From assembly GCA_018713285.1 (NCBI GenBank), contig DVFK01000080.1, positions 1-58,835 on the forward strand: a DNA stretch of 58,835 nt, read 5' to 3'. Source of the stretch: Candidatus Faecousia excrementigallinarum. GTDB taxonomy: Bacteria > Bacillota > Clostridia > Oscillospirales > Oscillospiraceae. Below, one piece after another: positions 14,870 to 46,847 of this stretch. The position numbers were made by a program, and so were the translations under genes. The notes under the pieces were generated by a model. It did no database searches. It saw only the letters and a list, made by a program, of their open reading frames with translations, and was not told the DNA's origin. Each line of letters opens with the position of its first letter. Within the stretch, counting starts at the first letter, position 1.

Positions 14870-16120
14870 TTAACCCAGCTCCTGGCGTACCAGGGTCACA
14901 AAGTCCTCCAAAGCCTGGGGGTTGCAGGTGCGGATGTCCTTGAGAATCACTTCCGTGAAGCACCGTCCGGCGGTGGCGTCCTTTACCCGGCCCAGAAGCT
15001 TCCGGATTTCCCCTTCCTCAAAGCCGGAGCAGATGAGGGCGGGGTTGGGCTTCCAGGAGTAGATGGCTTTCTTGCCGATGTTCTCCGCCGCAATTTCGAT
15101 GTTGCTCCAGGGGCTGACGCTGAGGCGGCGGATGTTGGGGAGAAACTCAAAAATCATCTCGTACTTGTCGTCCAGAGGCTCACAGCAGCCGTAGCAGGCC
15201 ATGCCGAACTTGGTCAGACCCATGGCCTGATAGGGGAGGGCAAACTCCCGGAGCATGGCCGGGGAGACCTGGGAGAACTCCTGGGAATCGGCAAAGCCCC
15301 ATAGATCGGAAAGGCGGATATGGGCAGGGTCTTTTACCGGGTCCGGCAGGTATCCCAGTCCGCCGGAGCCGGTGTAGATGTTGGTGCGGTTGTCAAAGAG
15401 GCGGTTTTCCTGCTCCAGCCGATCCAGCAGCCGCACCTTGGACTGGGCCATGTGGGAGAGAATCTGGTGCAGAAGCTCCGGCTCGTCATACAGGTCGTAC
15501 ATCAGCTGTTCCAGTCCCCGGAGGTGGACAAGTTCAATCAGCAGGCTCTGCACCAGTACCACATAGGGAAGAACGAAGTCAATCCGCACAAGACCGTCCA
15601 CCGCCTCATCGTAAAGGGCTTGCAGCTCCCGGATGCGCTGGGTGTCGGGGATGAAGTCCACCTCGTGCTCCAGCAGCCGACGGATATTTTCCGGGTCGTC
15701 CAGGTGGTTATTCAGGTGGTAGGCGTTCTTGGAAACCCCCTGTCCCTGCATGGGAATCCCCCAGGCACTGGTCTGGCTGGCGTTTCCATAGGCGTAGCCC
15801 GTATACTCGCCGGGCATTTCAAACCGCACCAGAGGTTCCAGAACGAAGTCATCGGCAAAGTGCTGGTGGTGGTACAATAGCTTTCGCAGCTGCCGCTCCA
15901 AAATCCGCAAATCCTTGTGGGTGGTGCGCAGGCTCTCCTCCGGCACCAGTTCCAGCCAGCCTCCGTCCTCGTCAGGGCAAATCCACAGCAGGGGGCGCTG
16001 GATTTCTACCAAACCATTGTGAGCCTGCCAGCGGCGGCGGTTTTCTGCATACCGGGGCTGGGCAGCGGCCTCTGCCAGCTGGGCAGCCAGCTCCCGGATA
16101 ATGGCAAATTGTTCTTTCAT
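14870..16120 (-). CDS. URO-D superfamily protein A
   Basis: A 416-residue protein that I place in the uroporphyrinogen decarboxylase-like fold from its C-terminal half (KFGMACYGCCEPLDDKYEMI, then SVSPWSNIEIAAENIGKK, then YSWKPNPALICSG). The HemE substrate motif RQAGR is absent, so it is not a heme enzyme. A CC pair in YGCCEPLDD sits where related corrinoid/thiol methyltransferases have metal ligands. The reaction is unknown. It overlaps the GH31 gene by 4 nt (ATGA) and is followed by ribokinase, so it belongs to sugar metabolism by context. Confidence 0.7.
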   Translation of the reverse strand: MKEQFAIIRELAAQLAEAAAQPRYAENRRRWQAHNGLVEIQRPLLWICPDEDGGWLELVPEESLRTTHKDLRILERQLRKLLYHHQHFADDFVLEPLVRFEMPGEYTGYAYGNASQTSAWGIPMQGQGVSKNAYHLNNHLDDPENIRRLLEHEVDFIPDTQRIRELQALYDEAVDGLVRIDFVLPYVVLVQSLLIELVHLRGLEQLMYDLYDEPELLHQILSHMAQSKVRLLDRLEQENRLFDNRTNIYTGSGGLGYLPDPVKDPAHIRLSDLWGFADSQEFSQVSPAMLREFALPYQAMGLTKFGMACYGCCEPLDDKYEMIFEFLPNIRRLSVSPWSNIEIAAENIGKKAIYSWKPNPALICSGFEEGEIRKLLGRVKDATAGRCFTEVILKDIRTCNPQALEDFVTLVRQELG

Positions 16121-18168: not shown

Positions 18169-19260
18169 TTACGCTTTGAAATGGGCGGCGGTGTAGGCAA
18201 TGAGGCGCTCTGCCTCCTGCTGGCTCTCCGCTTCTGTGTGGATATACAGGCCCCGGGCGGAGAGGCTGTCCAGCAGCTTGGGCAAATCCTCCGGGGGCGT
18301 CATGACAATCAGTCCCACACCGGCCTTCTGAATCCGCTGGAGGGTGTCCAGGTAGTGGACCGGGGAGGGCTGGCCTGCCACATTGGTCCATTGGATGGCT
18401 TTCAGGCCGGGAAGGCTCAGAATCATATCCAGGTGGCGGATCTGCTCGGCGCCGTCAAAATGGTACACCGGGTAATCCAGCCAGGCGCATTGCTCCTCCA
18501 GCTCCGGCATCACCACCTGGGCGTACATGGCGGGAGAGAGCATGACGGACAGGTCGCACTGCATCTGCATGAGCTTTCCCGGCGCCCACAAATCCATCCA
18601 GGCGTGGACGGTGCCGCCGCAGTCCTCCCGGCTGATGTCATAAAACTTCTGACAGGAGTCCTTCCAGCCGGCGTTTACGATTTTGATGGCTTCCAGCACC
18701 TGGTCCGGGTCGTCTGCCAGATCCATCAGCACGTTTTCTGTGCCGCACAGGTGGCAGATGGCGTCCAGGGTGCCGCAGCTGTCGGGCATTCCCACAAAAT
18801 ACCGTCCCTCCGCCTCGTCCACCAGCCGCTGGGCAATTTCCAGGTGGGGCCGCAGCCGCTCCGGCTGATACCGGAAGCCCTCCGGGGCGGTGTCCGGGAG
18901 AATGGGGTTAAACCAGATGGTGTCCCGCCCATATTCCGGCTGGGCGCCGAAGTAGTTGCAGTGGCCGCTGGTGCCGTAGTTCTGGAAAACCGCCGGCAGA
19001 GCCTCCCCTCCGAAGAAGGTCTGGCTCATCTCCTCCACCCGCTCCCGGCAGATGGTCTCCGGGTCCGTCCAGTGGCGGACAAGGGCGGCTTTGTCGCCGT
19101 GATACTCCCGGGTATTCAGGAAGGGGGACACGTTGGCGCCGGGGATTTTGGGGGCTTTGATGGAGATACAGGGACGGTCCACAATTTCCCGCTCCCAGAA
19201 AGCCCCCAGCCGCTCCAAGGCCTGGGGCAAATCCGGCTTCCACAAGGTAGGCTGAATCAT
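18169..19260 (-). CDS. URO-D superfamily protein B
   Basis: A 363-residue protein of the uroporphyrinogen-decarboxylase-like family, judged from the barrel segments PVYHFDGAEQIRHLDMIL and LKAIQWTNVAGQPSPVHYLD. It lacks the RQAGR motif of HemE and the HxC...C zinc motif of cobalamin methyltransferases; YHFDG stands where HxCG occurs in relatives. Function unknown. It is the first gene of the minus-strand operon, with AAAGGAG before its start and a LacI-type operator 23-38 nt further upstream. Confidence 0.65.
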   Translation of the reverse strand: MIQPTLWKPDLPQALERLGAFWEREIVDRPCISIKAPKIPGANVSPFLNTREYHGDKAALVRHWTDPETICRERVEEMSQTFFGGEALPAVFQNYGTSGHCNYFGAQPEYGRDTIWFNPILPDTAPEGFRYQPERLRPHLEIAQRLVDEAEGRYFVGMPDSCGTLDAICHLCGTENVLMDLADDPDQVLEAIKIVNAGWKDSCQKFYDISREDCGGTVHAWMDLWAPGKLMQMQCDLSVMLSPAMYAQVVMPELEEQCAWLDYPVYHFDGAEQIRHLDMILSLPGLKAIQWTNVAGQPSPVHYLDTLQRIQKAGVGLIVMTPPEDLPKLLDSLSARGLYIHTEAESQQEAERLIAYTAAHFKA

Positions 19261-20155: not shown

Positions 20156-23100
20156 TTAGTGGGTGTTGTGCTTGCGACGCTGGAGAACCAGCAGGATGGT
20201 CACAGCAGATGCAGACATAAACATCAGCAGCAGAACCGTGGCCAGGGCGAAGGTTTCGCCGGTCTGGTCGGGGCCGTCAGGATCGGTGGGCTCCTTGGTG
20301 TCCTCGGGCTTGGTGGTCTCCGTGGGGTTGGAGGGATCGGAAGGCTCGGAGGGCTCGGAGGGATCCGTGGGCTCAGAAGGATTGGAGGGATCGGTGGGCT
20401 GGGAAGGATCGGTAGGATCGGTGGGTTCGGAAGGATCGGTAGGATCAGTGGGATCAGTGGGGTCCACCGGGTCCGTGGTCTCTTCCGGTACCTGGAAGAT
20501 CTCCACCTCGTAAATGTCCGCAGCGCCGGTGATTTCCAGCCGGATGGTGTCAGCGGTGGTTTCGGAGAAGGAAATCAGGTTGAAGCCCTGGCTCAGCTCC
20601 GTAACCTCGGCCACCTGGTCATCCCCCAGGAACACTTTGACGCTCTCGGGCACCTGGTCCCCAATCCATACCTGCACGCCGGAGATTACTTCCCCGGATG
20701 CCAGCTGGAAGGTGACGGATTCGGTGCCGCCGGGTACCACCCAAGCCTTGCCGTCGTCCAGCTTGCCGTCTACCATGTTGTATACGGTGTCGGCGGTGGC
20801 GGTGAAGGTCTGGTAACGGCCGGGCTCACCCACGTGGCCCAGGCCGAAGCCTGCGGTGGGCAGGGGCTCCCAGCTAAAGTCCACGGTGGCCTTGTCCCCT
20901 CTGTCCTGGTCGGTGTGGACCTTCATCCAGCCGGTGCCCAGGTCTTCAATGTGTCCCGTCAGGTTGTCCGGGTTGGTGTCGTCCACCTTGCCGAAGAACT
21001 CGTCGGCTCCGGCGGAAATGCTGCTGCTGGTGGCCCAGCGGTAGTGGGCACCTGCCACCTGTCCGGGAACCTTATCCGGGTTCACGGTCTCCTGGGTGGC
21101 GCAGACGGCGTAACGCTTGCCGGCTTCCAGGACGAACCGTCCGCCATCGGCGGTATACATCTGGATTTCATAGGGGATACCGAAGCCGCCCTCGGTAATC
21201 TCCTCCTTGGTCAGGGTGCCGTAGGCCAGAGCCTTCCCCACGGGAGTGCTGCCGTCGGCGCTGACCTCGCTCAGGTATACCTTGAAGTCGTGGTAGTCCT
21301 GAGGCCAGCAGGACTGGTCGTTTACGTTGATCATCAGCTCCACAGACTCCAAAGTGGCATTGGCGTCGATGGTGGAAGAGATGACCGTGAGGTTCTTGCC
21401 CTCGAAGGTGGTTTCTGCTGCGTAGTTGCCGGTGTTCAGGGTGGCAAAGCCATACAGGGCTACGGCGCTGTTGCCGCTGTGCTGGAATACCACCCGGACA
21501 GCCTCGGCGTTCACCATGTCAAAGGCGATGGTGTTCTTGCCGCTGGTGATGTTCACCGCCCGGCGGACATTGGCGGCGTCCTTCCAGGTGCCGTCTTCCA
21601 GATACTGGACGGTGTAGTCCTGGGGAAGGGCCACGGCGGAGTTGCCGTTGAGGGAAGCCAGCAGGCTCAGCTCAATCCGGTTTACATAACGGCTTTCGGG
21701 GTACTGCACGCCGTAGTAGCTGGTGGTGCCGGTGGCAGATACCCAGTAGGCGTTGGGATTGATGGTCTCGCCCACAGGTGCGGAGGCGTTGGCTCCTTCT
21801 CCTGCTTCGCTGGAGACGGCGGTGCCGGTGGTGGACAGGTTGGGTCCGTAGACCGGAGCCACCTCGCCGGTGTAGACGGATTTCAGGCCGTCCACCCACA
21901 GGTAGGTGCCGTCGCCGCTGGTTTCGGCAATGATTTCAATGTAGTTGATGTTGGAAAGGTCCGGCTCACCGGTGCGGGTCATGGTCCAGTTGGCATCTCC
22001 GGCGTAGGGGATGTACATGGGAACCCACTCGGTACGCCACTGACCGGCCTTGATGTCCGCAAAGTTCAGGGGGGACAGGAAGGTGTCGTTGGCCTGGTAG
22101 GTGAAGTAGTTGTTCTCGTCGGTGTAGAGCTTCACGGTGGGGGAGTTGGCGGAGAACCAGTTCCGCTCGTCGTGAATCCGGGCGCTGAAGGCAAGGGCTG
22201 CATCCTGGCTGAAATCTGCACCCAAATCCTTGGTGGCGGGGTAGGTCAGGGAGTTGACGCCCTTGTGGGAGGTGACGGAAATGGAGTGGTCGCCGTCAAT
22301 GTTGTAGTAGGTCTTGAAGGTGGCCCATTCCTTTACCTCCGGGATGATGGCCTCCTGGACACCGCCCCGGTCGTCCTGGCCGCCGTTGACGCCGGAACCG
22401 AAAATCCAGTTCTCGGAGCTGTCCTCGGTGCCGATTTCCTCGCCCTCTGCCACCACATTGATGTTCACCCAGGCAATGTCGGACCACTCGCCATCGGTGA
22501 CGGTGAGGCCCACGTCATAGTAGCCGGGCTTTTCAAAGGAGAAGGTGACGGTCTCGGTGGTAAATACGGTGGCCTTGGAGCCAAAGTCGTCGCCCATGCT
22601 CCAGCGATAGGTGAGGTTGCCGCTGGCGGACTGGGAGTCCTTGGCGGAGAAGGTAATCTTCTCGCCCACCTGGAACTGGGTCTTGTCCACGGAAATCACA
22701 GCGGTGGGAGCGGTGGCTTCGTAGGTCTCCCGGTCGGCAATGTAGGTGCCCTCATGTTCGAACACATTGGTCACAGGATACTTGCCGTTGGGGTTGGCGT
22801 ATACGCCGTCAATCACGTTGCCCTCCAGCTTGTTGCCGGACAGGTCCACCCAGTCCACAGAGTCCAGATAGATGGCTGCGCCTTCACCTGCACCCTTGGC
22901 GGTGTTCTCGATGATGTTGTTCTGGATGAGGATGTGGCCTGCCACATACCCATCGGTGCGCTTGCTCACGTCGTAGCGGATGGCGATGCCGGAGCCGTTG
23001 TTGTTGTGGATGTGGTTGCCCACCAGCTCCACGTGCTCGGCGGTGCCGTTGAGGTACACGAGACCTCCGTTACCGGCACCCCGCTCGGCGGCGTTTGCCG

Positions 23101-25942
23101 GCATAATGCCGTTGTAAGCCACCTCGTTGTAGTAGAGGCTGGACTCATCGGTGCCGCCCATCCAGAAGCCGTAGCTGGAGTAGTTGGCCTTGTTGCCGAT
23201 GAAGTAGTTCCGTCCGGCCCAGCTCTCCACGGCGTTGTTGTTGGCAAAGGAGGTGTCGTTGTTTGCAAATACGTTGCCTTCGCAGGACCAGCCGTTGCCT
23301 ACCCGGATGAAAATGCCGTCGCCGCCGTGGGTGAAGTCATTGTCATAGAAGTAGTTGTAGTTGGAGCCTGCCTCCATCAGCTGGCTGGTGGAGTCCCGGG
23401 CGTGGACTTCGTCGTAGGCATCAATCCGGATGCCCCAGCTGAAATTGTTGCTGCGGATGTCGTTGTGGCTGGAATTCCACATCTCCAGACACACATCGGA
23501 GCAGACGGAGAAGTCGTTGTTTACAATGGTGTTGCCGTTGCTGTACTTGAGGTACAGGCCGTTGGCGTTGTTGTTGGCAATGTTGTTCCGGATGGTGGAG
23601 TTGTGAACGGATACCAGGGTCACAGCGCCGCCCAGCTGGTCACCCCAGCCGCCGTTGGGGTCGGTAAAGTTGTTGGACAGGTTGTTGTCCTCAATTACCA
23701 GACCGGAGGAGTTGGTGATATACATGGCATCGTGGAAGCCGCTGATGGTGAAGCCCTTGATGGTTACATTGGAAACACCGTCGGCCTGGATGCCCACGCC
23801 CTGGAACCGGGAAGTGGGGATGGCATAGGTGGTGCGGTCGAAGGGCTTGTTCTTCATGCCGTTTTCTACCCGGACGCCGTCGCCGTAGGACACATCCCAC
23901 CAGTAGTAGACCTTGGACTCTGCCAGGTCGCTGAAGGTCCGGACCCCGTCCTCAAAAAGCTCTATGGTGTCGATTTTCAGACCCAGGTCCCCAGGAACGG
24001 CACCGCCTGCCTCATAGGCAATGCGGATTTTCACGGTCTTGCCGGAATAGGCGGACAGGTCAGCGGTGAGGGTGCTCCACTCGCTGGTGACGTCGGTCTT
24101 GGAGGCCACCTGGGTGAAGTCCGTGCCGTTTTCAGATACGTACACCTTCATGGCGCCGGAGAAGTTGTCGGCCTTTACATCCAGGCTCAGGCGGATGGTG
24201 CCGGCGCTGCCCATATCCCAGGAGCGGGTCAGCATGTAAACCTGCTGGCCGTCTGCGGCGTTGAGCTGGTAGGCGTAAGCGCCGGTGGTCACGTTCTCAA
24301 GGAGGGTTTCCGGGGCGGCGTTCTGGATGACCACGCCGGTGCCGTCTACGGTGATGTTGCTGCCGGCAATGAGGATGCCTTCCTCGGCACCGCCAAAGTC
24401 ATAGACGCCGGGCTTGAACACCGTATCCTGGGTGATGACCATGCCGGGAACGGGGATGACCTTGCCGTCCTCGTCCAGGATGGACAGGCTGACGGTGCCG
24501 GTGGCGCTGCCGCAGGTGGCCTGAATCTGCACCACGCCGGGGCCCACTGCGGTGACGGTGCTGCCTTCCACGGTAGCCTTGGTCTCATCCAGAGAGGTAT
24601 AGGTGACGGTCTGACCCTCCATCACTTCCCCGTACTGGTCGGTGACCACGGCGGAGAGCTCTGTGGTGCCGCCGATTTCCAGCATGGAGGACTCTGCCTT
24701 TACGGTGATGGTGGTGGGTTCCGGCTCGGGAGGCAGAGCCTCGCCGTAGTTGACCTTCATCCGGCCGGTGCCCAGGTCTTCCACCACCCAGTTATTCTCG
24801 GTGATGTTGTTCACATCGGAGCCGTTGGCGGTCTTGCCGAACTGCTCCCCGGTCTCATCGGCAGCAGCCACGCTGCCGGTGGCCCAGCCATAGCAGTCAT
24901 AGCCGCCGTGGAGGGACAGGGGCGTTTCCATGGTCATGGCCACAGCGTACCGCACGCCTTCTTCCAGCTCGCAGGAGATGGGGACGTTGAAGGGCTCGTT
25001 GGAGGTGATGTTCTCCGCCGGGACGGTGGTCTGCACCAGGGGATCCCCGGTGGGCAGGCCTTCGTCGTTGGTGGCAAAGACTGCCACAATCAGGTCGTGA
25101 ATCTCCTCCAGGCCGCTTTCGCCGCTGTGGTCAAACTTGGCTACCCGCAGATCCAGGGAGCGGAGGTCTGCGGTCTGGTTGGAGGTGAAGGACTGCCAGC
25201 GCCATTCGTTGCCGGTGGCACCGAAGCCGAAGCCGTTGGCAGAGGTTTCAAAGGAGTAGTCGATGGTCATGGGGGCTCTCTGGTAGTACACCTTCATCCA
25301 GGCGGTGCCCAGGCCGCTTTCGTCTACCCAGTTGATGGGGTCTACGCCGCTGGTCTTGCCGAAAAATTCAGCCTCGTTCCGGGTGCCGCAGAACCAGTCG
25401 TAGCACTGGCCTTCGCCGGTGGTGTCGCCGCCGTTGCCGGTGACCTTGCTGGATTTGAGCACCACGGCATACTGCTTGCCGGCTTCCAGCTCATAGGTCA
25501 GCTCCAGGCGGGTAATCATGTCGTCGGTGACGGTCTGTCCGGCTACGGCGGTGTTCACCTGGTTGCCGGAGAGGGTGGTGCCTACCGCCAGAGGTTCGCC
25601 GGTGGGCATACCGTCTGCCACGGCGTAAAGTTCTGCGTGGAGGTCAATGAAGGCTTCCGTTACCGCATCCTTCTTCAGGAGCACCACTTCCACAGCCTCC
25701 ATGGTGCCGTCCTTGGTGGCGGTGAAGGTCTGCCAGCGGTACTCGTTGCCGGCCAGGGCGAAGCTGTAGCCCCAGTCCGCCAGCTGGTCAAAGGAATAGT
25801 CGATGACATTGGGGTCGTATCCTGCGGGGGGCGCATTTTGGGGGGAGGCATCGGTGCCCACGGCTGCCACGGAGGTCAGACCGCCGGATGCCAGACACAG
25901 CTCCAGCAGGATTGCCAGAAAGCGTGTAAATGCGTTTTTCAT
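20156..25942 (-). CDS. Giant multidomain surface protein with beta-helix, PKD, Big and discoidin-like domains
   Basis: A 1928-residue secreted protein. Order (approximate residues): signal peptide 1-27; two copies of a 170-residue domain (GNEYRWQTFTA ... LGTAWMKV) 45-415; Big-type Ig domain 420-505; galactose-binding-like sandwich 545-660; right-handed parallel beta-helix 690-1060 rich in NNxxSNN-type turns; PKD 1080-1165; second sandwich 1180-1350; F5/8 type C-like domain 1365-1490; third copy of the 170-residue domain 1500-1665, and a shorter fourth near 1670; Pro-Thr-Asp/Ser spacer; C-terminal transmembrane helix and RRKHNTH tail. PDQTGE replaces a standard LPXTG. The start at 25942 gives AAAGGA a 7-nt spacing. 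Probable role: binding, and possibly cleaving, an extracellular glycan; the beta-helix could be a lyase or hydrolase, but no catalytic motif is identified. Confidence 0.82.
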   Translation of the reverse strand: MKNAFTRFLAILLELCLASGGLTSVAAVGTDASPQNAPPAGYDPNVIDYSFDQLADWGYSFALAGNEYRWQTFTATKDGTMEAVEVVLLKKDAVTEAFIDLHAELYAVADGMPTGEPLAVGTTLSGNQVNTAVAGQTVTDDMITRLELTYELEAGKQYAVVLKSSKVTGNGGDTTGEGQCYDWFCGTRNEAEFFGKTSGVDPINWVDESGLGTAWMKVYYQRAPMTIDYSFETSANGFGFGATGNEWRWQSFTSNQTADLRSLDLRVAKFDHSGESGLEEIHDLIVAVFATNDEGLPTGDPLVQTTVPAENITSNEPFNVPISCELEEGVRYAVAMTMETPLSLHGGYDCYGWATGSVAAADETGEQFGKTANGSDVNNITENNWVVEDLGTGRMKVNYGEALPPEPEPTTITVKAESSMLEIGGTTELSAVVTDQYGEVMEGQTVTYTSLDETKATVEGSTVTAVGPGVVQIQATCGSATGTVSLSILDEDGKVIPVPGMVITQDTVFKPGVYDFGGAEEGILIAGSNITVDGTGVVIQNAAPETLLENVTTGAYAYQLNAADGQQVYMLTRSWDMGSAGTIRLSLDVKADNFSGAMKVYVSENGTDFTQVASKTDVTSEWSTLTADLSAYSGKTVKIRIAYEAGGAVPGDLGLKIDTIELFEDGVRTFSDLAESKVYYWWDVSYGDGVRVENGMKNKPFDRTTYAIPTSRFQGVGIQADGVSNVTIKGFTISGFHDAMYITNSSGLVIEDNNLSNNFTDPNGGWGDQLGGAVTLVSVHNSTIRNNIANNNANGLYLKYSNGNTIVNNDFSVCSDVCLEMWNSSHNDIRSNNFSWGIRIDAYDEVHARDSTSQLMEAGSNYNYFYDNDFTHGGDGIFIRVGNGWSCEGNVFANNDTSFANNNAVESWAGRNYFIGNKANYSSYGFWMGGTDESSLYYNEVAYNGIMPANAAERGAGNGGLVYLNGTAEHVELVGNHIHNNNGSGIAIRYDVSKRTDGYVAGHILIQNNIIENTAKGAGEGAAIYLDSVDWVDLSGNKLEGNVIDGVYANPNGKYPVTNVFEHEGTYIADRETYEATAPTAVISVDKTQFQVGEKITFSAKDSQSASGNLTYRWSMGDDFGSKATVFTTETVTFSFEKPGYYDVGLTVTDGEWSDIAWVNINVVAEGEEIGTEDSSENWIFGSGVNGGQDDRGGVQEAIIPEVKEWATFKTYYNIDGDHSISVTSHKGVNSLTYPATKDLGADFSQDAALAFSARIHDERNWFSANSPTVKLYTDENNYFTYQANDTFLSPLNFADIKAGQWRTEWVPMYIPYAGDANWTMTRTGEPDLSNINYIEIIAETSGDGTYLWVDGLKSVYTGEVAPVYGPNLSTTGTAVSSEAGEGANASAPVGETINPNAYWVSATGTTSYYGVQYPESRYVNRIELSLLASLNGNSAVALPQDYTVQYLEDGTWKDAANVRRAVNITSGKNTIAFDMVNAEAVRVVFQHSGNSAVALYGFATLNTGNYAAETTFEGKNLTVISSTIDANATLESVELMINVNDQSCWPQDYHDFKVYLSEVSADGSTPVGKALAYGTLTKEEITEGGFGIPYEIQMYTADGGRFVLEAGKRYAVCATQETVNPDKVPGQVAGAHYRWATSSSISAGADEFFGKVDDTNPDNLTGHIEDLGTGWMKVHTDQDRGDKATVDFSWEPLPTAGFGLGHVGEPGRYQTFTATADTVYNMVDGKLDDGKAWVVPGGTESVTFQLASGEVISGVQVWIGDQVPESVKVFLGDDQVAEVTELSQGFNLISFSETTADTIRLEITGAADIYEVEIFQVPEETTDPVDPTDPTDPTDPSEPTDPTDPSQPTDPSNPSEPTDPSEPSEPSDPSNPTETTKPEDTKEPTDPDGPDQTGETFALATVLLLMFMSASAVTILLVLQRRKHNTH
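20320..20475 (-). repeat. Tandem codon repeats for the PT-rich wall spacer
   Basis: Short degenerate GGATCNGTNGG/GGNTCNGAAGG units encode DPTDPTDPSEPTD-type repeats near the C-terminus of the surface protein. Copy number is likely to vary between strains. Confidence 0.8.
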
Positions 25943-26010
25943 AGCCATGTCCTTTCTTGTGTTTTGTTTCGTTCCGCAGCCAAACAGATAGAAACAATGG
26001 TTTTTCTTTG

Positions 26011-26028
26011 TGATAAAACGGTTTATCA
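26011..26028. promoter_or_regulatory. LacI-type operator 2 (giant surface protein)
   Basis: TGATAAAACGGTTTATCA, 70-86 nt upstream of the surface protein start and almost identical to the sites at 19283 and 35519. On the minus strand a TTTGCT-16-GATAAA promoter would overlap it; an alternative promoter TTTACA-17-TATGCT lies further upstream (26103-26131). Confidence 0.8.
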
Positions 26029-26029
26029 T

Positions 26030-26263
26030 TCGGGAATAAGAAAAGCAAAGCGTAAATACACAGCTAAGACCATGGATGCGCTTTGTTTCTTTAAGGAAAG
26101 CATAACATTTTTAGAACTTTTTGTAAATAACCATTGTGATACGGATTGAATTTTCGTGCAATGCGTCTAAAATTAAGTAGATTAGTTGTGCACAATGGCG
26201 AAAAAGAAAATGGGGAAAAGTAAAAGGCATTATCACGGAAAAGCGACATAATTCAGAAGTTTT
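26030..26263. other. AT-rich non-coding stretch
   Basis: The stretch between the surface protein promoter region and the terminator of the YesL-like gene is AT-rich. Apart from the possible promoter of the surface protein at 26103-26131 (minus strand) I see nothing in it. Confidence 0.5.
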
Positions 26264-27057: not shown

Positions 27058-27086
27058 ATCATACCCCATCCCGGTGATTCTGTCAA
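27058..27086 (-). promoter_or_regulatory. Promoter of the YesL-like gene
   Basis: Minus strand TTGACA (27086-27081), 17-nt spacer, TATGAT (27063-27058). The -35 overlaps the last codons of the antiporter gene. Confidence 0.8.
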
Positions 27087-28285
27087 GGATTCTCCCGGCT
27101 TAAGAATTTTCCGTAGGTCAGCTCCATTCCCAGGCTTCCCAGAGGGGTGGTAATGAGGATGGCCAGCACCGCTGTGGAGAGAATCAGCTGTCCGCAGGGC
27201 AGACCCATCGCCAGGGGCACGGAGCCGATGGCTGCCTGCACCGTGGCCTTGGGGCAGTAGGCGATGATGCAGAACAGCCGCTCCTTAGCCGTAAGCCCGG
27301 TGCCCAGCAGGCACAGCCACACCCCCACGCCCCGGAACACCAGCGCCAGGGCAATCATGGCAATGGCCAGAGGCCCGGCGGTGAGGGTATAGGAAATATC
27401 CACCGCTGCGCCCACCAGGACGAACAGCAGCACCTCCGCTCCCAGCCAGAGCTTCCCGAATTTCTCCGACAGCCGTTTACTCACCGCAGCCACGGACTTG
27501 ATTTTGATGGTACAGGCCATGCTCATCACTGCCAGAAGGCCGGACACCGCCACGGTGCCTTTTGCCCATTCCTCCACCGCCATGAGAAGGAAGGACACCC
27601 CCAGCACCACAATCACCTTCATGCTGTTGCGCACCGGCTGACGGTGTGCCCAGGCCCTTTCAAAAAACCAGGAAAGCCCCAGTCCCACCACTGCGCCCAG
27701 GGCGATGCCCAGGACAATGGAGATGGGGATGTTGAGAAAATCCCCCATATGGACGCTGCCGCCCTGGACCATGGACAAAAAGGTGGTAAAGAGGACAATG
27801 ACGAAAATATCGTCGCAGGAAGCCCCCGCCAGAATCATCTGGGGGATACGCTTCCCGGTGCCGTAGCCCCCTTCCATCAGCTGCACCATTTTGGGCACCA
27901 CCACCGCCGGGGACACCGCCCCCAGCACCGCCCCCATGAGGGCTGCCTCCATCCGGTTCACTCCCAGAAGCCAGGGGGCAAAGAGGGTAAAGGCCAGAAT
28001 CTCACAGCTGGCAGGCACAAAGGACAAAAGCACCGCAGGCCGCCCCACCTGCTTCAAGTCCCGCAGGTTCAGGGAGAGTCCCGCTTTCAGCAAAATGATA
28101 ATGAGGGCCATCTGCCGAAGCTGGGCGGAAATGGACAAAATGGAGGGGTCCAGCAAATCCAGCACATAGGGCCCCAGCACCACGCCGGTAAAGCGCATCC
28201 CCACAATCCGGGGCAGCCGCAGCTTCCGGCAAATCCCGCCCAGGGACAGCCCCACCAGGAAAATATAGCCCAAAGATGTTAACAT
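27083..28285 (-). CDS. Kef-type cation:proton antiporter (CPA2), fluoride-riboswitch controlled
   Basis: A 400-residue membrane protein with about 12-13 transmembrane segments and no C-terminal RCK/TrkA domain. Segments such as LILLKAGLSLNLRDL, here seen as IILLKAGLSLN, and AVLGAVSPAVVVPKM place it in the Na+/H+ exchanger (Pfam family) CPA2 group. The start at 28285 follows CAGGAGG. Its leader carries a probable fluoride riboswitch, so its expression should rise with fluoride. Some antiporters of this superfamily are known members of the fluoride-riboswitch regulon. Whether it moves fluoride, or protons and Na+/K+ to offset fluoride stress, cannot be read from sequence. Confidence 0.85.
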   Translation of the reverse strand: MLTSLGYIFLVGLSLGGICRKLRLPRIVGMRFTGVVLGPYVLDLLDPSILSISAQLRQMALIIILLKAGLSLNLRDLKQVGRPAVLLSFVPASCEILAFTLFAPWLLGVNRMEAALMGAVLGAVSPAVVVPKMVQLMEGGYGTGKRIPQMILAGASCDDIFVIVLFTTFLSMVQGGSVHMGDFLNIPISIVLGIALGAVVGLGLSWFFERAWAHRQPVRNSMKVIVVLGVSFLLMAVEEWAKGTVAVSGLLAVMSMACTIKIKSVAAVSKRLSEKFGKLWLGAEVLLFVLVGAAVDISYTLTAGPLAIAMIALALVFRGVGVWLCLLGTGLTAKERLFCIIAYCPKATVQAAIGSVPLAMGLPCGQLILSTAVLAILITTPLGSLGMELTYGKFLSRENP

Positions 28286-28324
28286 AAAAAATACCTCCTG
28301 TTTCTCTTTTCTCCCCCGAAAAAC

Positions 28325-28405
28325 AAAAAAATGACCTCTGCACAAGTGCAGAAGTCATTAGCGTTTCAGGCGGTTCCGGCATGGCCGAGGGAGAACTTCA
28401 TTCCC
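28325..28405 (-). ncRNA. Fluoride (crcB-motif) riboswitch with expression-platform terminator
   Basis: On the minus strand the leader begins GGGAATGAAGTTCTCCC, matching the GG(N)GATGRNG...CC first stem of the crcB motif. A small CGGC-CAT-GCCG stem is followed by AACCGCCTGAAACGC and then TAATGACTTCTGC, the counterpart of the conserved CTGATGACNCCTGC end. That end also forms the left arm of a terminator, AATGACTTCTGCAC-TT-GTGCAGAGGTCATT plus a T7 run, as expected for a transcriptional on-switch. The call rests on motif memory; a covariance-model search would decide it. Confidence 0.8.
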
Positions 28406-28420
28406 AAACATATTGGGGCT

Positions 28421-28569: not shown

Positions 28570-29439
28570 ATGGCAAAGGTTGACAACGCAGTGATGATTG
28601 TGGCCGGGACTTCCAGCCGCTTTGCCCCTCTGTCTTACGAGCACCCCAAGGGGCTGACCCGGGTGCGGGGAGAGGTTCTCATTGAACGGCAGATTTCCCA
28701 GCTCCGGGCGGCAGGCATCCGGGACATTTACCTGGTGGTGGGATACATGGGGGACCGGTTCTCCTACTTACAAAAGAAGTTCGGGGTGCATATTCTGGAA
28801 AATTCCCAGTATGCCCATCGGAACAACCACGGAAGCATCTATGCCGCCCGGGAGGTGCTGGGCAATTCCTACGTGTGCTGCGGGGACAATTATTTTGCCA
28901 GCAATCCTTTTGAACCGGAGGTGGCGGAGAGCTACTACGCCACGGTGTTCGCCCAGGGGCCGACCCAGGAGTGGTGCGTCTACACGGACAAAGAGGATGT
29001 GATTAACCGGGTGGAAATCGGGGGGAGGGATGCCTGGTATATGCTGGGACATACCTACTGGGATAGGGACTTCTCCCGGACGTTTCTGGATATTCTGGAA
29101 AGGGTCTATGACCTGCCGGAAACCAGGGACAAGCTGTGGGAAGGGATTTATGCCGACCATCTGGATAAGCTTTCCATGAAGCGCCGGTGCTACCCGGATG
29201 GGACGATTTTTGAATTTGACACCCTGGACGAGCTGCGGGAGTTTGACCCCTCCTACTGGGAGGACAGCCGCTCTGTTATCTTAAAGGATGCGGCGGCCCA
29301 GCTGGGCTGCCAGGAGAGAGAACTCACCCGGCTTCGGGCTCTGCGGGGCAGCACCAATGCGGCGGAGGGCTTTTCCTTCTGCTGGCAGGGTAAGCACTAC
29401 TACTACAACTATCAGGAAAGAATTGTGAGGGAAGGGTAA
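28570..29439 (+). CDS. LicC-like nucleotidyltransferase (probable CTP:phosphocholine cytidylyltransferase)
   Basis: A 289-residue NTP-transferase with a GT-A fold. The N-terminal nucleotide-binding segment is VAGTSSRFAPLSYEHPKGL, a variant of the usual GxGxRxxPLTxxxPKxL; the CGDNYF segment holds a metal-binding aspartate. About 50 residues after the core domain are family-specific. Coupling to a choline-kinase-like gene (1-nt overlap) points to activation of phosphocholine or a similar phospho-alcohol to a CDP-linked form. A sugar-1-phosphate nucleotidyltransferase is the alternative. The gene opens the four-gene surface-polymer cluster behind a consensus promoter. Confidence 0.8.
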   Translation: MAKVDNAVMIVAGTSSRFAPLSYEHPKGLTRVRGEVLIERQISQLRAAGIRDIYLVVGYMGDRFSYLQKKFGVHILENSQYAHRNNHGSIYAAREVLGNSYVCCGDNYFASNPFEPEVAESYYATVFAQGPTQEWCVYTDKEDVINRVEIGGRDAWYMLGHTYWDRDFSRTFLDILERVYDLPETRDKLWEGIYADHLDKLSMKRRCYPDGTIFEFDTLDELREFDPSYWEDSRSVILKDAAAQLGCQERELTRLRALRGSTNAAEGFSFCWQGKHYYYNYQERIVREG

Positions 29440-30347
29440 TGGCAAGACAGATTGAGACCCGGGACATCCCCCGGATTCGGGAGCTTTTGCAAAGGGTTTT
29501 GGGGGCGGAGGACTATGCCCGGCTGGAACGTCTGGGAGGACTGACCAACCGCACCTACAAGACCGTGCTGGAAAACGGCGAAATCTATGTGGTGCGGATT
29601 CCCGGGGAGGGAACCGGGGACATGATTTGCCGGGCCGATGAGAAAATCAGCACCACCCTGGCCTGCTCCCTGGGGGTGGACGCTCCACTACTGTACTTTG
29701 GAGACGGGGGTGAGAAGGTCAGCCGGTACATTCCCAAAGCCCAGACTTTGTGCGCCGCCGCCCTGCAAGAGCCGGAGCGGATTGCCCAGGCGGCAGAGCT
29801 TCTTCGCCGGGTACATACCTGCGGCAAAGACACCGGGGTGCCCTTCCAGGTGTTCTCCATGGCAGAATCCTATGAGGGGATTATCAAGAATAAGGGCGTG
29901 CCTATGTACGCCGATTACCCAGAGATTAAGGAAGCGGTGGCGAAAATCCGGAAAAGTCTGCCGGAGCCCTCCCTGGTCCCTTGCCACAACGACCCCCTGT
30001 GTGAAAACTGGGTACAGGGGGCGGACAAGCTGTACCTGCTGGACTGGGAATACGCTGGAATGAATGACCCCATGTGGGATCTGGCGGATGTGTCCATCGA
30101 GGCTGGCTACACCCAGGAGCAGGACAACCGGCTGCTGGAAAGTTATCTCCAGCGGAAGCCCACCGGGGAGGAACAGCGGCGGTTTTTAGCCAACAAGATT
30201 TATGTTGACTATCTGTGGACCCTGTGGGCCAAGACCCGGGTCCCCTATGACGGACAGCCCATGGAGGACTGGGCGGCGGAGCGGTATACCCGGCTGAAGG
30301 GCTTTTTGGCGGAATTCGGGAGGCTGGAAGCGGCGGTATGCAGGTAA
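29439..30347 (+). CDS. Choline/ethanolamine kinase-like phosphotransferase (LicA-like)
   Basis: A 302-residue APH/choline-kinase-fold protein. The Brenner-type catalytic loop is CHNDPLCENW (residues about 183-192) and the metal-binding segment is LLDWEYAGMNDPMWDLAD, both close to LicA and choline kinases. It should phosphorylate choline, ethanolamine or a related alcohol to feed the upstream cytidylyltransferase. It is coupled at both ends (1-nt and 10-nt overlaps). No choline transporter (LicB) or LicD is visible in the window. Confidence 0.85.
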   Translation: MARQIETRDIPRIRELLQRVLGAEDYARLERLGGLTNRTYKTVLENGEIYVVRIPGEGTGDMICRADEKISTTLACSLGVDAPLLYFGDGGEKVSRYIPKAQTLCAAALQEPERIAQAAELLRRVHTCGKDTGVPFQVFSMAESYEGIIKNKGVPMYADYPEIKEAVAKIRKSLPEPSLVPCHNDPLCENWVQGADKLYLLDWEYAGMNDPMWDLADVSIEAGYTQEQDNRLLESYLQRKPTGEEQRRFLANKIYVDYLWTLWAKTRVPYDGQPMEDWAAERYTRLKGFLAEFGRLEAAVCR

Positions 30348-31576
30348 TTCTTTACATCGACCCGGGCACCGGGAGTATGCTCTTTACGGTGCTCATTGGC
30401 ATTTTGGGAGCCTTTGTCTACACACTGCGGATGCTGTGGATTCGGCTTCGGTTCCGCCTCTCCGGCGGCAAGAGCAAGGACACCCGGGAAAAACACCCCT
30501 TTGTGATTTTCTCCGACGACAAGCGGTACTGGAACATCTTTGCCCCCATCTGCCGGGAGCTGGGCAGCCGGGGCATTGACACCGTGTATATGACCCAGTC
30601 CCCCGACGACCCGGCTCTCACCCAAAAGGACCCCCACATAAAGGCAATGTGCATCGGCAAGGAAAACCGGGCCTTTACCAAGCTGAACTACCTCCGGGCG
30701 GACGTGCTCCTTTCCACCACCCCGGGTCTGGACGTGTACCAGTGGAAGCGCTCCCCGGATGTGAAGTGGTATGTCCACATCCCCCACGCCCCCAGTGACA
30801 TTACCCTCTACCGGATGTTCGGCCTGGACTACTATGACGCCGTGCTTCTCTCCGGCGACTATCAGATTGAACAGCTCCGCCAGCTGGAAGCCCAGCGGGA
30901 GCGTCCCCCTAAGGAACTGGTGAAGGTGGGTATTCCCTATATGGACGGGATGGCAGAACGTCTTGCTCAGGCTGGACCGGTTCCGGAGCATCCCACCACG
31001 GTGCTGCTGGCACCCTCCTGGGGCAAAAGCGCCCTGTTTTCCGTGTACGGCGGGGAGATTCTCCGGGTGCTGCTGAATACCGGCTACCATGTAATTGTCC
31101 GTCCCCACCCCCAGTCCTTCGCCTCGGAAAAGGAGCTGATGGATTCCCTCCAGCGGGAATTCCCGGAGAGCGACCAGCTGGAATGGAACCGGGATACGGA
31201 TAACTTCCAGGTGCTGCGCCGTTCGGACATTCTGATTTCCGACTTCTCCGGGGTGATTTTTGAATTCTCCCTGATTTACGACAAGCCGGTGATTTACACC
31301 GACCCCAACTTCGATTTGGGGCCATATGACGCCTGGTGGCTGAAAGACCCCCTGTGGACGGTGGGGGCTCTGCCCCGGATTGGCGAGGCGCTCACCCGGG
31401 AGAATATGCCCAACCTCAAGTCCCTGATTGACGCCTGCCTCACCGATGCCCGGTACGAGGAAGGACGCCACCAGGTAATGGCAGAGACCTGGGCCTATCC
31501 GGGTCAGGGAGCCAAGCTGGCTGCGGATTATATAGAGAAGAAGCTCCGGGAGCTGAACGCCGGAGAGGAGGGGTGA
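30338..31576 (+). CDS. CDP-glycerol glycerophosphotransferase family protein (TagB/TagF-like)
   Basis: A 412-residue protein with an N-terminal membrane segment (about 8-32) and a GT-B-like teichoic-acid polymerase domain. Conserved pieces include HIPHAPSD, LLAPSWGKSA, VIVRPHPQS and the SDILISDFSGVIFEFSLIYDKPVIY stretch, split here at its ends, which contains the nucleotide-binding region. Family members transfer glycerol- or ribitol-phosphate from CDP-alcohols to a wall polymer. In this context CDP-choline or another CDP-alcohol may be the donor (inference). Confidence 0.87.
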   Translation: MQVILYIDPGTGSMLFTVLIGILGAFVYTLRMLWIRLRFRLSGGKSKDTREKHPFVIFSDDKRYWNIFAPICRELGSRGIDTVYMTQSPDDPALTQKDPHIKAMCIGKENRAFTKLNYLRADVLLSTTPGLDVYQWKRSPDVKWYVHIPHAPSDITLYRMFGLDYYDAVLLSGDYQIEQLRQLEAQRERPPKELVKVGIPYMDGMAERLAQAGPVPEHPTTVLLAPSWGKSALFSVYGGEILRVLLNTGYHVIVRPHPQSFASEKELMDSLQREFPESDQLEWNRDTDNFQVLRRSDILISDFSGVIFEFSLIYDKPVIYTDPNFDLGPYDAWWLKDPLWTVGALPRIGEALTRENMPNLKSLIDACLTDARYEEGRHQVMAETWAYPGQGAKLAADYIEKKLRELNAGEEG

Positions 31577-31580
31577 AACC

Positions 31581-34260: not shown

Positions 34261-35298
34261 TTATTTCTTGGGGCCGGCGGAGGAGCGGATGACCAGGCCG
34301 GGGGTGAAGCGGATTTCCTGGGCGCCGTAGGCGCCGGCGTCGGAGGGCTTCCGGCTCTGGCGGATGCGCTTGATTACCAGGCGGCAGGTCTCCTTGCCCA
34401 TATCGTAGATGTTCTGGTCCACGCTGGTCAGAGGGGTTTCCAGGTATTCACAGAAGGGGTTGTTATCGAAGCCCACCAGGCCGAAATCCTCTCCCAGCCG
34501 GTAGTGATACTTCTTCAAAGCCTTGATGACGCCAATGGCCATCAGGTCGTTGCAGGCGAAAATGCCGTCGCAGCCGTTTTCCAGCAGGGGCTGGGCCTGA
34601 AGGAGGCCCGACTGCAAGGTAAAGTCCCCGGAGGCAATCAGGGCGTCGTTTTTGGGGATGTTGTATTCCCGCAGGGCGTCCAGATACCCCTCCAGCCGGT
34701 CCCGGGAGAAGGAGCGGTTCAGAGGGCCGGTGATGCAGCCGATGGAGCGGTAGCCCTGGGACAGGAGGAACCGGGTGGCAAGATACCCGCCCATCCGGTG
34801 ATTGACGCTCACAATGTCGTAGCTGCTGCCGATGAGCTGCCGGTCAAACTGCACCACCGGCACCCGGCTCCGGGCAGCCAGGGCGTTGAACTCGTTGGCC
34901 AGGGGAATTTCGTCGTCGGAGATGGAGCTTACCAGCACCACCCCGTCCACCTGCCGGTTCAGAAGCAGCTGCAAATTCTCCACGTCCTTCTTGCCCTGGT
35001 CGTTGGAGTTGCAGAAAATCACAAAGTAGCCCTGCTTGTGGGCTTCCCGCTCGATGCCCTTGGCCAGCTCTGAGAAGTAGGGGTTGGAGATGTCGGGCAT
35101 GATAAGCCCCAGGGTGCGGGTCTGCTTGGTGACCAGGGCCCGGGCGGAGTAGTTGGGGGCGTAGTTGTGCTCCTTGGCCACATCCTGGATGCGTTTTCTG
35201 GTTTCGTCGGAAACCCGGCAGGGGCGCTTGTTCAGTACCAGGGATACGGTGGTGGGGGAGACGCCCACCTCGTTGGCAATATCCTTGATGGTATACAT
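34261..35298 (-). CDS. LacI-family transcriptional regulator of the glycan regulon
   Basis: A 345-residue LacI/GalR repressor. The N-terminal helix-turn-helix is YTIKDIANEVGVSPTTVSLV with the hinge helix near RKRIQDVAKEHNY; the periplasmic-binding-like effector domain spans about 60-340. The start at 35298 is set by GGAGG and by the conserved N-terminus. Matching palindromes in front of three nearby glycan transcription units make it the likely regulator of the locus, and a weaker palindrome behind its own promoter suggests autoregulation. The effector sugar is unknown. Confidence 0.93.
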   Translation of the reverse strand: MYTIKDIANEVGVSPTTVSLVLNKRPCRVSDETRKRIQDVAKEHNYAPNYSARALVTKQTRTLGLIMPDISNPYFSELAKGIEREAHKQGYFVIFCNSNDQGKKDVENLQLLLNRQVDGVVLVSSISDDEIPLANEFNALAARSRVPVVQFDRQLIGSSYDIVSVNHRMGGYLATRFLLSQGYRSIGCITGPLNRSFSRDRLEGYLDALREYNIPKNDALIASGDFTLQSGLLQAQPLLENGCDGIFACNDLMAIGVIKALKKYHYRLGEDFGLVGFDNNPFCEYLETPLTSVDQNIYDMGKETCRLVIKRIRQSRKPSDAGAYGAQEIRFTPGLVIRSSAGPKK

Positions 35299-35345
35299 GG
35301 CAAATCCTCCTTTGGGGGGCTGCATACATTAAATAAAGTAAAATT

Positions 35346-35351: not shown

Positions 35352-35380
35352 GCACAGGATTCCCAAAAAGGAAAGAGATA

Positions 35381-35396
35381 GATAAAGCGAGTTACC
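35381..35396. promoter_or_regulatory. Possible LacI-type operator 4 (autoregulation)
   Basis: GATAAAGCGAGTTACC agrees with operator 3 at 13 of 16 positions and lies just upstream of the lacI -35 region. Confidence 0.45.
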
Positions 35397-35475
35397 ACTT
35401 TTTAACATGGCAAAATACACAAAAAATGGGGGCGTTTTTTTACGATGCAAAAGCAGATAATACGAGAATAATGGG

Positions 35476-35518: not shown

Positions 35519-35535
35519 GGATAAAACGGTTTACC
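35519..35535. promoter_or_regulatory. LacI-type operator 3 (binding-protein operon)
   Basis: GGATAAAACGGTTTACC, sharing its ATAAAACGGTTTA core with operator 2, in the 5' leader of the 19.5-kb glycan operon. Confidence 0.8.
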
Positions 35536-35581
35536 GAAAGCGACCCCGAAACCCAAACAAAAAACCAAGGAGGAAAAAACA

Positions 35582-45731: not shown

Positions 45732-46834
45732 ACAAAGGACACAGCCTGGAAGATTTGTATTTGCTGGACAACAGCCGCCGGCGGCGGCTTTCCAGCTATG
45801 ACCGCACCGGGGGCAACCGCGACTGGATGGACCTGCCCGCCGGGAAGACCAAAACCATCGGGGAAATTCATGGTTGCGGCATTATCCGCCACATCTGGAT
45901 GACCCACTGGACCGGAGACGAAAACTGGCAGGAGGAGCCTTACGCCCTGCGGAAGCTGATTCTCCGGATGTACTGGGACGGAGAGGAAACTCCCAGCGTG
46001 GAGGTGCCTCTGGGGGACTTCTTTGCCATTGGCTTCGGCATGGCCACCCCGGTCAATTCTGCGGCCCTGTGTGCCAACCCGGAGGACGGCAGGGGTATGA
46101 ACTGCTTTTTCCCCATGCCCTTCCGGAAGGGTGCCAGATTCACCATCGAAAGCCAGTGTGAAAATCACACCAATTTTTACTACTACATCGACTATGAGGA
46201 AGTGGCGGAGCTTCCCCAGGAGGCCGGGTACTTCCACGCCTGCTGGCACCGGGAGGACAACACCCGGGGCTGGGCACCCAAGGAAATCGGACTTCTGGAC
46301 CGGGAGAAAGCCAATGTGCCGGAGGAACCGGCCTGGGTACCCAAGGCCTGGCTCACCAAGAACACCACCGGGGAGGATAATTATGTCATCCTGGATGCGG
46401 TGGGAAAGGGAAAGTATGTGGGCTGCTGCCTCCATGTGGATGTGTTTGAGCCCCAGTGCAACGAGTGGTACGGAGAAGGGGACGACATGATTTTCATTGA
46501 CGGAGAGCTGGCGCTGAACGGTACCGGCACGGAGGACTACTTCAACACCGCCTTCTGCCCCACCCAGGTATACTGCACCCCATACAGCGGCCTGACCCGG
46601 TACAGCGGGGACAAAACCCGCCCGGGGTACAAATTCGCCGGGAAGAACAGTATGTACCGGCTCCACATCTGCGACCCCATCCAATTTGAAAAATCCATCC
46701 GGGTGACCATCGAGCACGGCCATGCCAACAAGCTGTCCAACGATTACAGCAGCACGGCCTACTGGTATCAGACCGAACCCCACGCACCCTTTGCCCCCCT
46801 GCCCCCGGTGGAGGGACGCTTGCCCAGAGAATAA
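45728..46834 (+). CDS. GH172 (DUF2961) furanosidase-like protein
   Basis: A 368-residue DUF2961 protein with the double jelly-roll signature segments CGIIRHIWMTHW, EVPLGDFFAIGFG and LNGTGTEDYFNTAF. GH172 members cleave alpha-D-fructofuranosides, D-arabinofuranosides or related linkages and form oligomers. Cytoplasmic by absence of a signal peptide. The presence of FucI, RbsD and ribokinase in the same regulon would fit D-arabinose release and use (inference). Confidence 0.87.
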   Translation: MNKGHSLEDLYLLDNSRRRRLSSYDRTGGNRDWMDLPAGKTKTIGEIHGCGIIRHIWMTHWTGDENWQEEPYALRKLILRMYWDGEETPSVEVPLGDFFAIGFGMATPVNSAALCANPEDGRGMNCFFPMPFRKGARFTIESQCENHTNFYYYIDYEEVAELPQEAGYFHACWHREDNTRGWAPKEIGLLDREKANVPEEPAWVPKAWLTKNTTGEDNYVILDAVGKGKYVGCCLHVDVFEPQCNEWYGEGDDMIFIDGELALNGTGTEDYFNTAFCPTQVYCTPYSGLTRYSGDKTRPGYKFAGKNSMYRLHICDPIQFEKSIRVTIEHGHANKLSNDYSSTAYWYQTEPHAPFAPLPPVEGRLPRE

Positions 46835-46847
46835 AGGAGGAATTTCC

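What the first reader, a model, noticed from the sequence alone, without database searches (positions are those of the whole stretch)
20156..25942. 1928-residue surface protein with triplicated unknown domain and non-standard anchor
A roughly 170-residue domain (GNEYRWQTFTA ... GTxWMKV) occurs three times, with a shorter fourth, around a beta-helix, PKD, Big and discoidin-like domains. The C-terminus has a PT-rich spacer, PDQTGE, a membrane helix and a basic tail but no LPXTG. Regulation by the glycan LacI operator marks it as the outer capture or depolymerising component.
Basis: partly seen in the sequence, partly recalled or inferred. Interest (0 to 1): 0.6.

Follow-up and report, generated by a model that had tools for sequence, protein, structure and literature searches.

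The report
Surface-anchored sugar-degrading β-helix protein
A bacterium related to gut anaerobes carries a very large cell-wall protein, switched by the same sugar sensor as a neighbouring sugar-uptake operon, that probably grips and cuts a complex glycan outside the cell; its repeated domain and its cutting core belong to no named sugar-enzyme family.

Summary
The 1928-residue protein (20156-25942, minus strand) contains three homologous ~175-aa domains (R1, R2, R3; pairwise E 6e-24 to 9e-12) and a 32-40-aa fourth piece. It also has Big_2, a right-handed β-helix with a MAM-like insert, PKD and F5/8C domains, a proline-rich spacer, PDQTGE, a membrane helix and a basic tail. A perfect LacI-type operator lies 69 bp upstream. 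In the whole 1.98-Mb assembly that operator matches (two mismatches or fewer) only here and at the adjacent GH31 operon; weaker copies flank the LacI/ABC-importer/GH35/GH65 locus. A full-length orthologue in another family of the same class (55-60% identical) has the same operator upstream and a class B sortase gene next door. In that genome a paralogue without a signal peptide sits inside the orthologous importer-GH35-GH31 operon. The β-helix body is the best-conserved module (80%; 48% to the paralogue). I therefore read it as a catalytic core with R and discoidin binding modules; activity is inferred, not shown. The repeat is a rare, undescribed domain, remotely related to 'choice-of-anchor R'. 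The anchor is ordinary for its genus: QTGE/xPxTGD signals are widespread there, and the assembly has two class B sortases. Substrate unknown.

The parts
20156..25942 (-). Gene for the 1928-aa cell-wall-anchored multidomain protein
   Evidence: ORF, start site after AAAGGA, orthologue begins at the same place
25859..25942 (-). Signal peptide (MKNAFTRFLAILLELCLASGGLTSVAAV)
   Evidence: Read from sequence
25280..25807 (-). R1 domain
   Evidence: E 6e-24 to R2; profile match
24740..25267 (-). R2 domain
24488..24715 (-). Big_2 Ig-like domain
   Evidence: Pfam PF02368, 22.9 bits, cut-off 22.8
24305..24463 (-). N-terminal turns of the β-helix (before the insert)
   Evidence: Aligns with the start of the paralogue L055, which has no insert
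23885..24304 (-). MAM-like β-sandwich inserted in the β-helix
   Evidence: Pfam PF20773 at residues 639-705; absent from L055
22742..23818 (-). β-helix body, proposed catalytic core (GIRID..EVHARDS, THGGDGIFIRV, NKANYSSYGFW)
   Evidence: Pfam PF13229 77 bits; best-conserved module, 80% and 48% identity; invariant polar cluster
22457..22714 (-). PKD domain
   Evidence: PF18911/PF00801
21860..22447 (-). Jelly-roll-like module of unassigned family
   Evidence: Conserved with orthologue, 57%; no Pfam match
21464..21823 (-). F5/8 type C (discoidin) domain
   Evidence: PF00754 34.4 bits, PF22633
20909..21427 (-). R3 domain (lacks the RWQTFTA start)
20768..20884 (-). R4: isolated R-type leader strand
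   Evidence: E 3.8e-6 to R1; profile E 1.7e-5
20480..20788 (-). C-terminal jelly-roll-like module
   Evidence: Present in orthologue and paralogue at 26-28% identity
20279..20479 (-). Pro/Thr/Asp/Ser-rich wall-spanning spacer
   Evidence: Read from sequence
20156..20272 (-). Sorting signal: PDQTGE, hydrophobic helix, RRKHNTH tail
   Evidence: Same signal in other proteins of the genome and genus
26011..26028 (.). LacI-type operator TGATAAAACGGTTTATCA, 69 bp upstream of ATG
   Evidence: 0.07 expected in window; only two places in the genome
19282..19299 (.). Second operator, in front of the GH31 operon
35380..35397 (.). Operator-like site between LacI gene and SBP operon
   Evidence: 3 mismatches
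35519..35536 (.). Operator-like site between LacI gene and SBP operon
   Evidence: 3 mismatches
34261..35325 (-). LacI-family regulator
   Evidence: PF00356 and PF13377
14870..19260 (-). GH31 operon: 363-aa unknown, GH31 (α-xylosidase-like), 416-aa unknown
   Evidence: 57% and 54% identical genes in L055
35582..55107 (+). Importer/catabolic operon: SBP, two permeases, GH2, GH35, GH65, DUF2961, UroD, GH38, HAD, RbsD/FucU, lyxose isomerase, UroD, FucI
   Evidence: Pfam; SBP, permeases, GH35 47-69% identical in L055

Best explanation
The gene encodes the outer, cell-wall-attached glycan-degrading protein of a LacI-controlled utilisation locus. When the inducer sugar is absent, LacI represses three transcripts: this gene, the GH31 operon and the SBP/permease/GH35/GH65/fucose-isomerase operon. 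When induced, the protein is exported by its signal peptide and probably linked to the wall by a class B sortase at PDQT|GE. The Pro/Thr spacer holds it clear of the wall. The R domains and discoidin modules bind the polymer, and the β-helix cleaves it into oligosaccharides, which the ABC importer takes up for the cytoplasmic GH35, GH31, GH65 and GH38 enzymes. Shown by sequence: domain order, homology of the repeats, operators, conserved gene partners, and presence of class B sortases. Inferred: repression by this LacI, sortase use, glycan binding by R, catalysis by the β-helix, and substrate.
For: Operator: exact at this gene, one mismatch at the GH31 operon, and nowhere else at two mismatches or fewer in 1.98 Mb. 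The orthologue in another family (L050, 55-60% identity) has an operator with two mismatches upstream, and the partner operon L055 has one with one mismatch. Six partner genes are 47-69% identical between the window and L055, and the L055 operon itself contains the β-helix paralogue without a signal peptide. The β-helix body is the best-conserved module (80% against 28-76% elsewhere; 48% against 24-45% in the paralogue), with invariant D/E/H/R/W/Y clusters. R domains also occur in S-layer-anchored proteins of four other genomes, each beside an SBP-permease-permease-GH65 set. Other QTGE proteins and class B sortases are present in this genome.
Against: No catalytic family matches the β-helix in Pfam, NCBIfam or PDB sequences; the only PDB match is weak and confined to generic β-helix turns. 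The paralogue lacks the insert and has no evident signal peptide, so its β-helix may act in the cytoplasm, which does not by itself prove hydrolysis. No structure of useful quality was obtained. The motif PDQTG does not fit the strict (S/P)PXTG rule, and C. difficile SrtB did not cleave NVQTG (PMC4155245). The class B-like sortase beside the orthologue adjoins a protein without a sorting signal.
Confidence: 0.6

Rival explanations
1. A capture protein without enzyme activity: the β-helix is an inert scaffold or binding surface, and R and discoidin domains hold the glycan while separate enzymes cut it.
For: No catalytic family assigned; many non-enzymatic domains; R copies are position-conserved in the orthologue (70% and 64%).
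Against: The β-helix body is the most constrained module, and it survives in a paralogue without signal peptide inside the importer operon, where surface capture makes no sense.
Confidence: 0.25
2. A host or inter-bacterial adhesin that binds a protein or mucosal surface, with the LacI link reflecting habitat sensing rather than glycan feeding.
For: Large sortase-type surface protein with Big, PKD and discoidin domains, as in many adhesins.
Against: Operator and gene partners are conserved across families; R-domain proteins recur next to sugar importers and GH65; paralogue without signal peptide.
Confidence: 0.1
3. The β-helix is a divergent GH141-type enzyme (fucosidase, fucanase or xylanase): the operon has L-fucose isomerase and mutarotase, I saw no GH29, GH95 or GH151 enzyme among its annotated genes, and the GH141 enzyme BT1002 also carries a β-sandwich insert near the N-terminus of its helix. 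This is a narrower form of the best explanation.
For: FucI and RbsD/FucU in the operon; insert position like that described for BT1002, residues 109-295 between 1-108 and 296-619 (PMC10154630).
Against: No detectable sequence similarity to any solved chain other than 8wm1 at E 10; the paralogue lacks the insert; fucosidases elsewhere in the genome were not searched for.
Confidence: 0.15

Closest known systems
choice-of-anchor R domain (NCBIfam NF041539)
   Same: Profile-profile match of the R family with Bacillota members found by that model: probability 95.4%, E 1.9e-8, 94 columns; one R relative matches the model directly at E 1.8e-4
   Different: The window copies do not match the model; R adds a GNEYRWQTFTA leader and a C-terminal Y-W...FGK...LGTGWMKV half mostly outside the aligned core
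GH141 β-helix glycosidases (BT1002, PDB 5MQP)
   Same: Parallel β-helix with a β-sandwich inserted near its start; fucose-related gene context
   Different: No detectable sequence similarity; catalytic Asp pair could not be placed
Class B sortase substrates of Clostridioides difficile ((S/P)PXTG)
   Same: Signal peptide, xxxTG[DE], hydrophobic helix and basic tail; class B sortases in the genome; genus members with NPKTGD, SPKTGD, PPKTGD
   Different: PDQTGE has Asp where Pro is expected; the sortase used is not identified
SLH-anchored R-domain proteins beside SBP-permease-GH65 operons (L016, L051, L052, L053)
   Same: One R domain, large surface protein, same type of importer and GH65 neighbours
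   Different: S-layer instead of sortase anchor; a different ~780-aa central region; no β-helix

Membership tests
Right-handed parallel β-helix (Pfam PF13229) | Score above the curated cut-off | tested here: met
   77.4 bits against 25.9
choice-of-anchor R (NF041539) | Score above 30 bits | tested here: not met
   No match in this genome; R1 no match and only 1 of 11 relatives matches
choice-of-anchor R (NF041539) | Remote homology of the core | tested here: met
   hhalign 95.4%, E 1.9e-8 over 94 columns
GH141 | Detectable sequence similarity to the solved member | tested here: not met
   hmmsearch of the PDB with the β-helix profiles gives only 8wm1 at E 10; presence of 5MQP in the library was not checked separately
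GH141 | Catalytic Asp pair (D523/D564 in BT1002) | not testable with these tools
   No alignment or usable model
GH141 | β-sandwich inserted in the helix near its N-terminus (seen in BT1002; whether the family requires it is not known) | tested here: met
   MAM-like match at 639-705 between helix parts 523-575 and 738-1096
Sortase-anchored wall protein | Signal peptide, xxxTG motif, hydrophobic stretch, basic tail | tested here: met
   Sequence; shared signal
Class B sortase substrate, (S/P)PXTG type | Pro at the second motif position | tested here: not met
   Motif is P-D-Q-T-G
Class B sortase substrate, (S/P)PXTG type | Class B sortase encoded in the genome | tested here: met
   TIGR03064: 199.6 bits (over cut-off 153.75) and 126.6 bits (below)
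LacI regulon member | Operator shared with the regulator's own locus | tested here: met
   0- and 1-mismatch sites here and at GH31; 3-mismatch sites at the LacI/SBP intergenic region
LacI regulon member | Co-expression or LacI binding | not testable with these tools
   Needs expression or binding data

The most novel reading that the evidence does not exclude
The β-helix body and its paralogue found a new glycoside hydrolase or lyase family that exists in a wall-anchored and an apparently cytoplasmic form inside one regulon. R is a new glycan-binding module family used with either sortase or S-layer anchors.
Probability: 0.3. Interest if true: 0.65.

Novelty: new variant of a known kind. Interest (0 to 1): 0.42.

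Why it matters
If right, it links an undescribed repeat domain and an unassigned β-helix to one regulated glycan pathway, with a natural control (the paralogue without signal peptide) that lets surface binding be told apart from catalysis. It also supplies a defined set of QTGE-type anchors against which the lineage's class B sortases can be assayed. The overall kind, a regulated surface glycan-degrading protein of a Gram-positive bacterium, is familiar.

Tried and rejected
Two scans of 84,980 species genomes with R alignments found nothing confirmed, and a viral-contig scan found nothing; short-peptide patterns are insensitive here, while HMM searches of sampled genomes did find relatives. 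Searches with the full protein mostly matched other proteins' Pro/Thr spacers, so the spacer was dropped. L013 (G250, E 7.5e-5) read as an unrelated lipoprotein and was discarded. The R1 model (pLDDT 52) is all-β; its fold matches (gingipain adhesin K3, CBM35, meprin) are not significant and carry no weight. The single-sequence β-helix model failed (pLDDT 33). The 1996-aa antisense ORF 20159-26149(+) was rejected as a gene: it follows from the absence of TTA, CTA and TCA codons (0 in 1929; about 1% chance at the local rate), and the orthologue has 50 such codons. The idea that R4 is a decaying copy was rejected because it is conserved in L050 and L055.

Full report
What is there. The gene runs from 25942 to 20156 on the minus strand; a longer ORF starts at 26029, but the second of two near-adjacent ATGs has the better spaced AAAGGA. 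Numbering below follows the 1957-residue ORF. Domain order: signal peptide; R1 75-250; R2 254-432; Big_2 439-514; β-helix 523-575 plus 738-1096 with a MAM-like insert between; PKD 1106-1191; a jelly-roll-like module 1195-1390; F5/8C 1403-1522; R3 1535-1707; an R-type leader 1716-1754 opening a final jelly-roll-like module; Pro/Thr spacer; PDQTGE; membrane helix; basic tail. The repeats are real: pairwise E-values 6e-24, 9e-12 and 6e-12, far above shuffled controls.

The repeat. R occurs three times in this genome, all in this gene. Among 301 genomes of the same family one other convincing case was found, in an S-layer-type protein (the second hit, L013, was discarded), and among 391 genomes of the class five others matched (one of them, G740, weakly at 5e-5 and not examined further). 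Pfam has no model for it. One distant relative matches NCBIfam choice-of-anchor R at E 1.8e-4, and a profile-profile comparison with Bacillota members of that model gives 95.4% and E 1.9e-8 over 94 columns. R is thus a divergent, undescribed relative of that family, not a member by its cut-off.

Relatives. Genome G992 (same class, different family) encodes a full-length orthologue, L050 902-7663: four R domains, the same Big_2, helix with insert, PKD, F5/8C and final modules, 55-60% identical. It ends in Ig-like repeats instead of a sorting signal, and a class B-like sortase gene follows (29% identical to each of the class B sortases of the window genome). The same genome has L055 5565-8822, a 1085-aa protein with β-helix, PKD, jelly-roll, F5/8C and R3-like parts but no insert and no evident signal peptide. 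No orthologue appeared in 295 genomes of the order, in 13 genomes of G992's family apart from G992, or in a 255-genome sample of the class with the helix profile. The protein is therefore sporadic.

Regulation. TGATAAAACGGTTTATCA lies 69 bp before the ATG, and a one-mismatch copy lies 22 bp before the GH31 operon. Allowing two mismatches, these are the only two places in the assembly; the reversed control pattern gave one match per strand. Two three-mismatch sites lie between the LacI gene and the SBP operon. In G992 the orthologue has TGATAAAACGTTTTACTA upstream, and the importer operon has TGGTAAATCGTTTTATCA before its SBP gene. That operon's SBP, two permeases, GH35, 371-aa protein and GH31 are 47-69% identical to the window's SBP, permeases, GH35, 363-aa protein and GH31. 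So the window's three separate transcripts correspond to one operon plus one surface gene elsewhere, tied by the same operator. This is the strongest evidence for shared function.

Enzyme or adhesin. The helix body is 80% identical to the orthologue and 48% to the paralogue; other modules are 28-76% and 24-45%. Invariant stretches include FTDP, GIRID, EVHARDS, THGGDG, FIRV, NGW, NKANYSSYGFW and GIAIRY. A paralogue without signal peptide inside an importer operon is hard to explain for a pure surface binder. This is why I prefer catalysis, but no catalytic family matches and no usable model was obtained. The operon contains L-fucose isomerase and a mutarotase, and I saw no fucosidase of GH29, GH95 or GH151 among its annotated genes, so a fucose-releasing role is attractive but unproven; the rest of the genome was not searched for fucosidases.

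Anchor. Four other proteins of the assembly end in QTGE signals (C64, C57, C63, C81). Across 31 genomes of the genus nearly all have matches to the anchor profile at a loose threshold, and those read in full show motifs such as PDQTGE, PAKTGD, PSQTGD, NPKTGD, SPKTGD. The assembly encodes two class C sortases beside an LPQTGG pilin, one class B sortase in a pilus-like cluster, and one solitary class B-like sortase. Class B sortases are known to read LPXTG variants: C. [quoted passage not shown] The solitary sortase on C59 is my candidate for PDQTGE; this is inference.

Wider pattern. In four further genomes a single R domain sits in a large SLH-anchored protein next to an SBP, two permeases and a GH65 gene. 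The window's operon also has GH65, 26-43% identical to theirs. This supports R as a glycan-related surface module.

Limits. The assembly is 88% complete in 121 contigs. Genome samples are partial. Co-expression, sortase use, binding and catalysis were not tested.

Noticed in passing
window 28342-28414 (-): Fluoride riboswitch (RF01734, 36.9 bits, over its cut-off) in front of the sodium/hydrogen exchanger gene 27083-28345(-).
   Followed up: no
window 20159-26149 (+): Uninterrupted 1996-aa antisense ORF mirroring the gene; explained by absence of TTA, CTA and TCA codons.
   Followed up: yes
window 14870-16120 (-) and 18169-19260 (-): Two proteins (416 and 363 aa) in the GH31 operon without Pfam or NCBIfam match; the 363-aa one has a 57% identical partner in L055, and its end looks UroD-like.
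   Followed up: partly
window 46722-47942 and 52304-53326 (+): Two UroD-family proteins inside a glycan operon with fucose isomerase and α-mannosidase.
   Followed up: no
L016 2317-7404, L051 5931-11375, L052 5864-12991, L053 7532-14425: SLH-anchored proteins with one R domain share a ~780-aa central region (37-43% identical between L016 and the other three) without Pfam match, beside GH65.
   Followed up: no
L018 1188-6983 (contig C57): Another 1931-aa QTGE-anchored protein; the sequence holds a PHP-like phosphoesterase motif (HSHTTYSDGSG), but Pfam matches are weak.
   Followed up: no
L022 3600-10788 (contig C81): Pilus-like cluster with a class B sortase: two proteins with a DTGI type end, one with IPQTGES, and what reads as a signal peptidase.
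   Followed up: partly
window 28570-34208 (+): Cluster of nucleotidyltransferase, choline kinase, CDP-glycerol glycerophosphotransferase-like and 60KD_IMP-domain proteins; possibly phosphocholine or teichoic-acid decoration.
   Followed up: no
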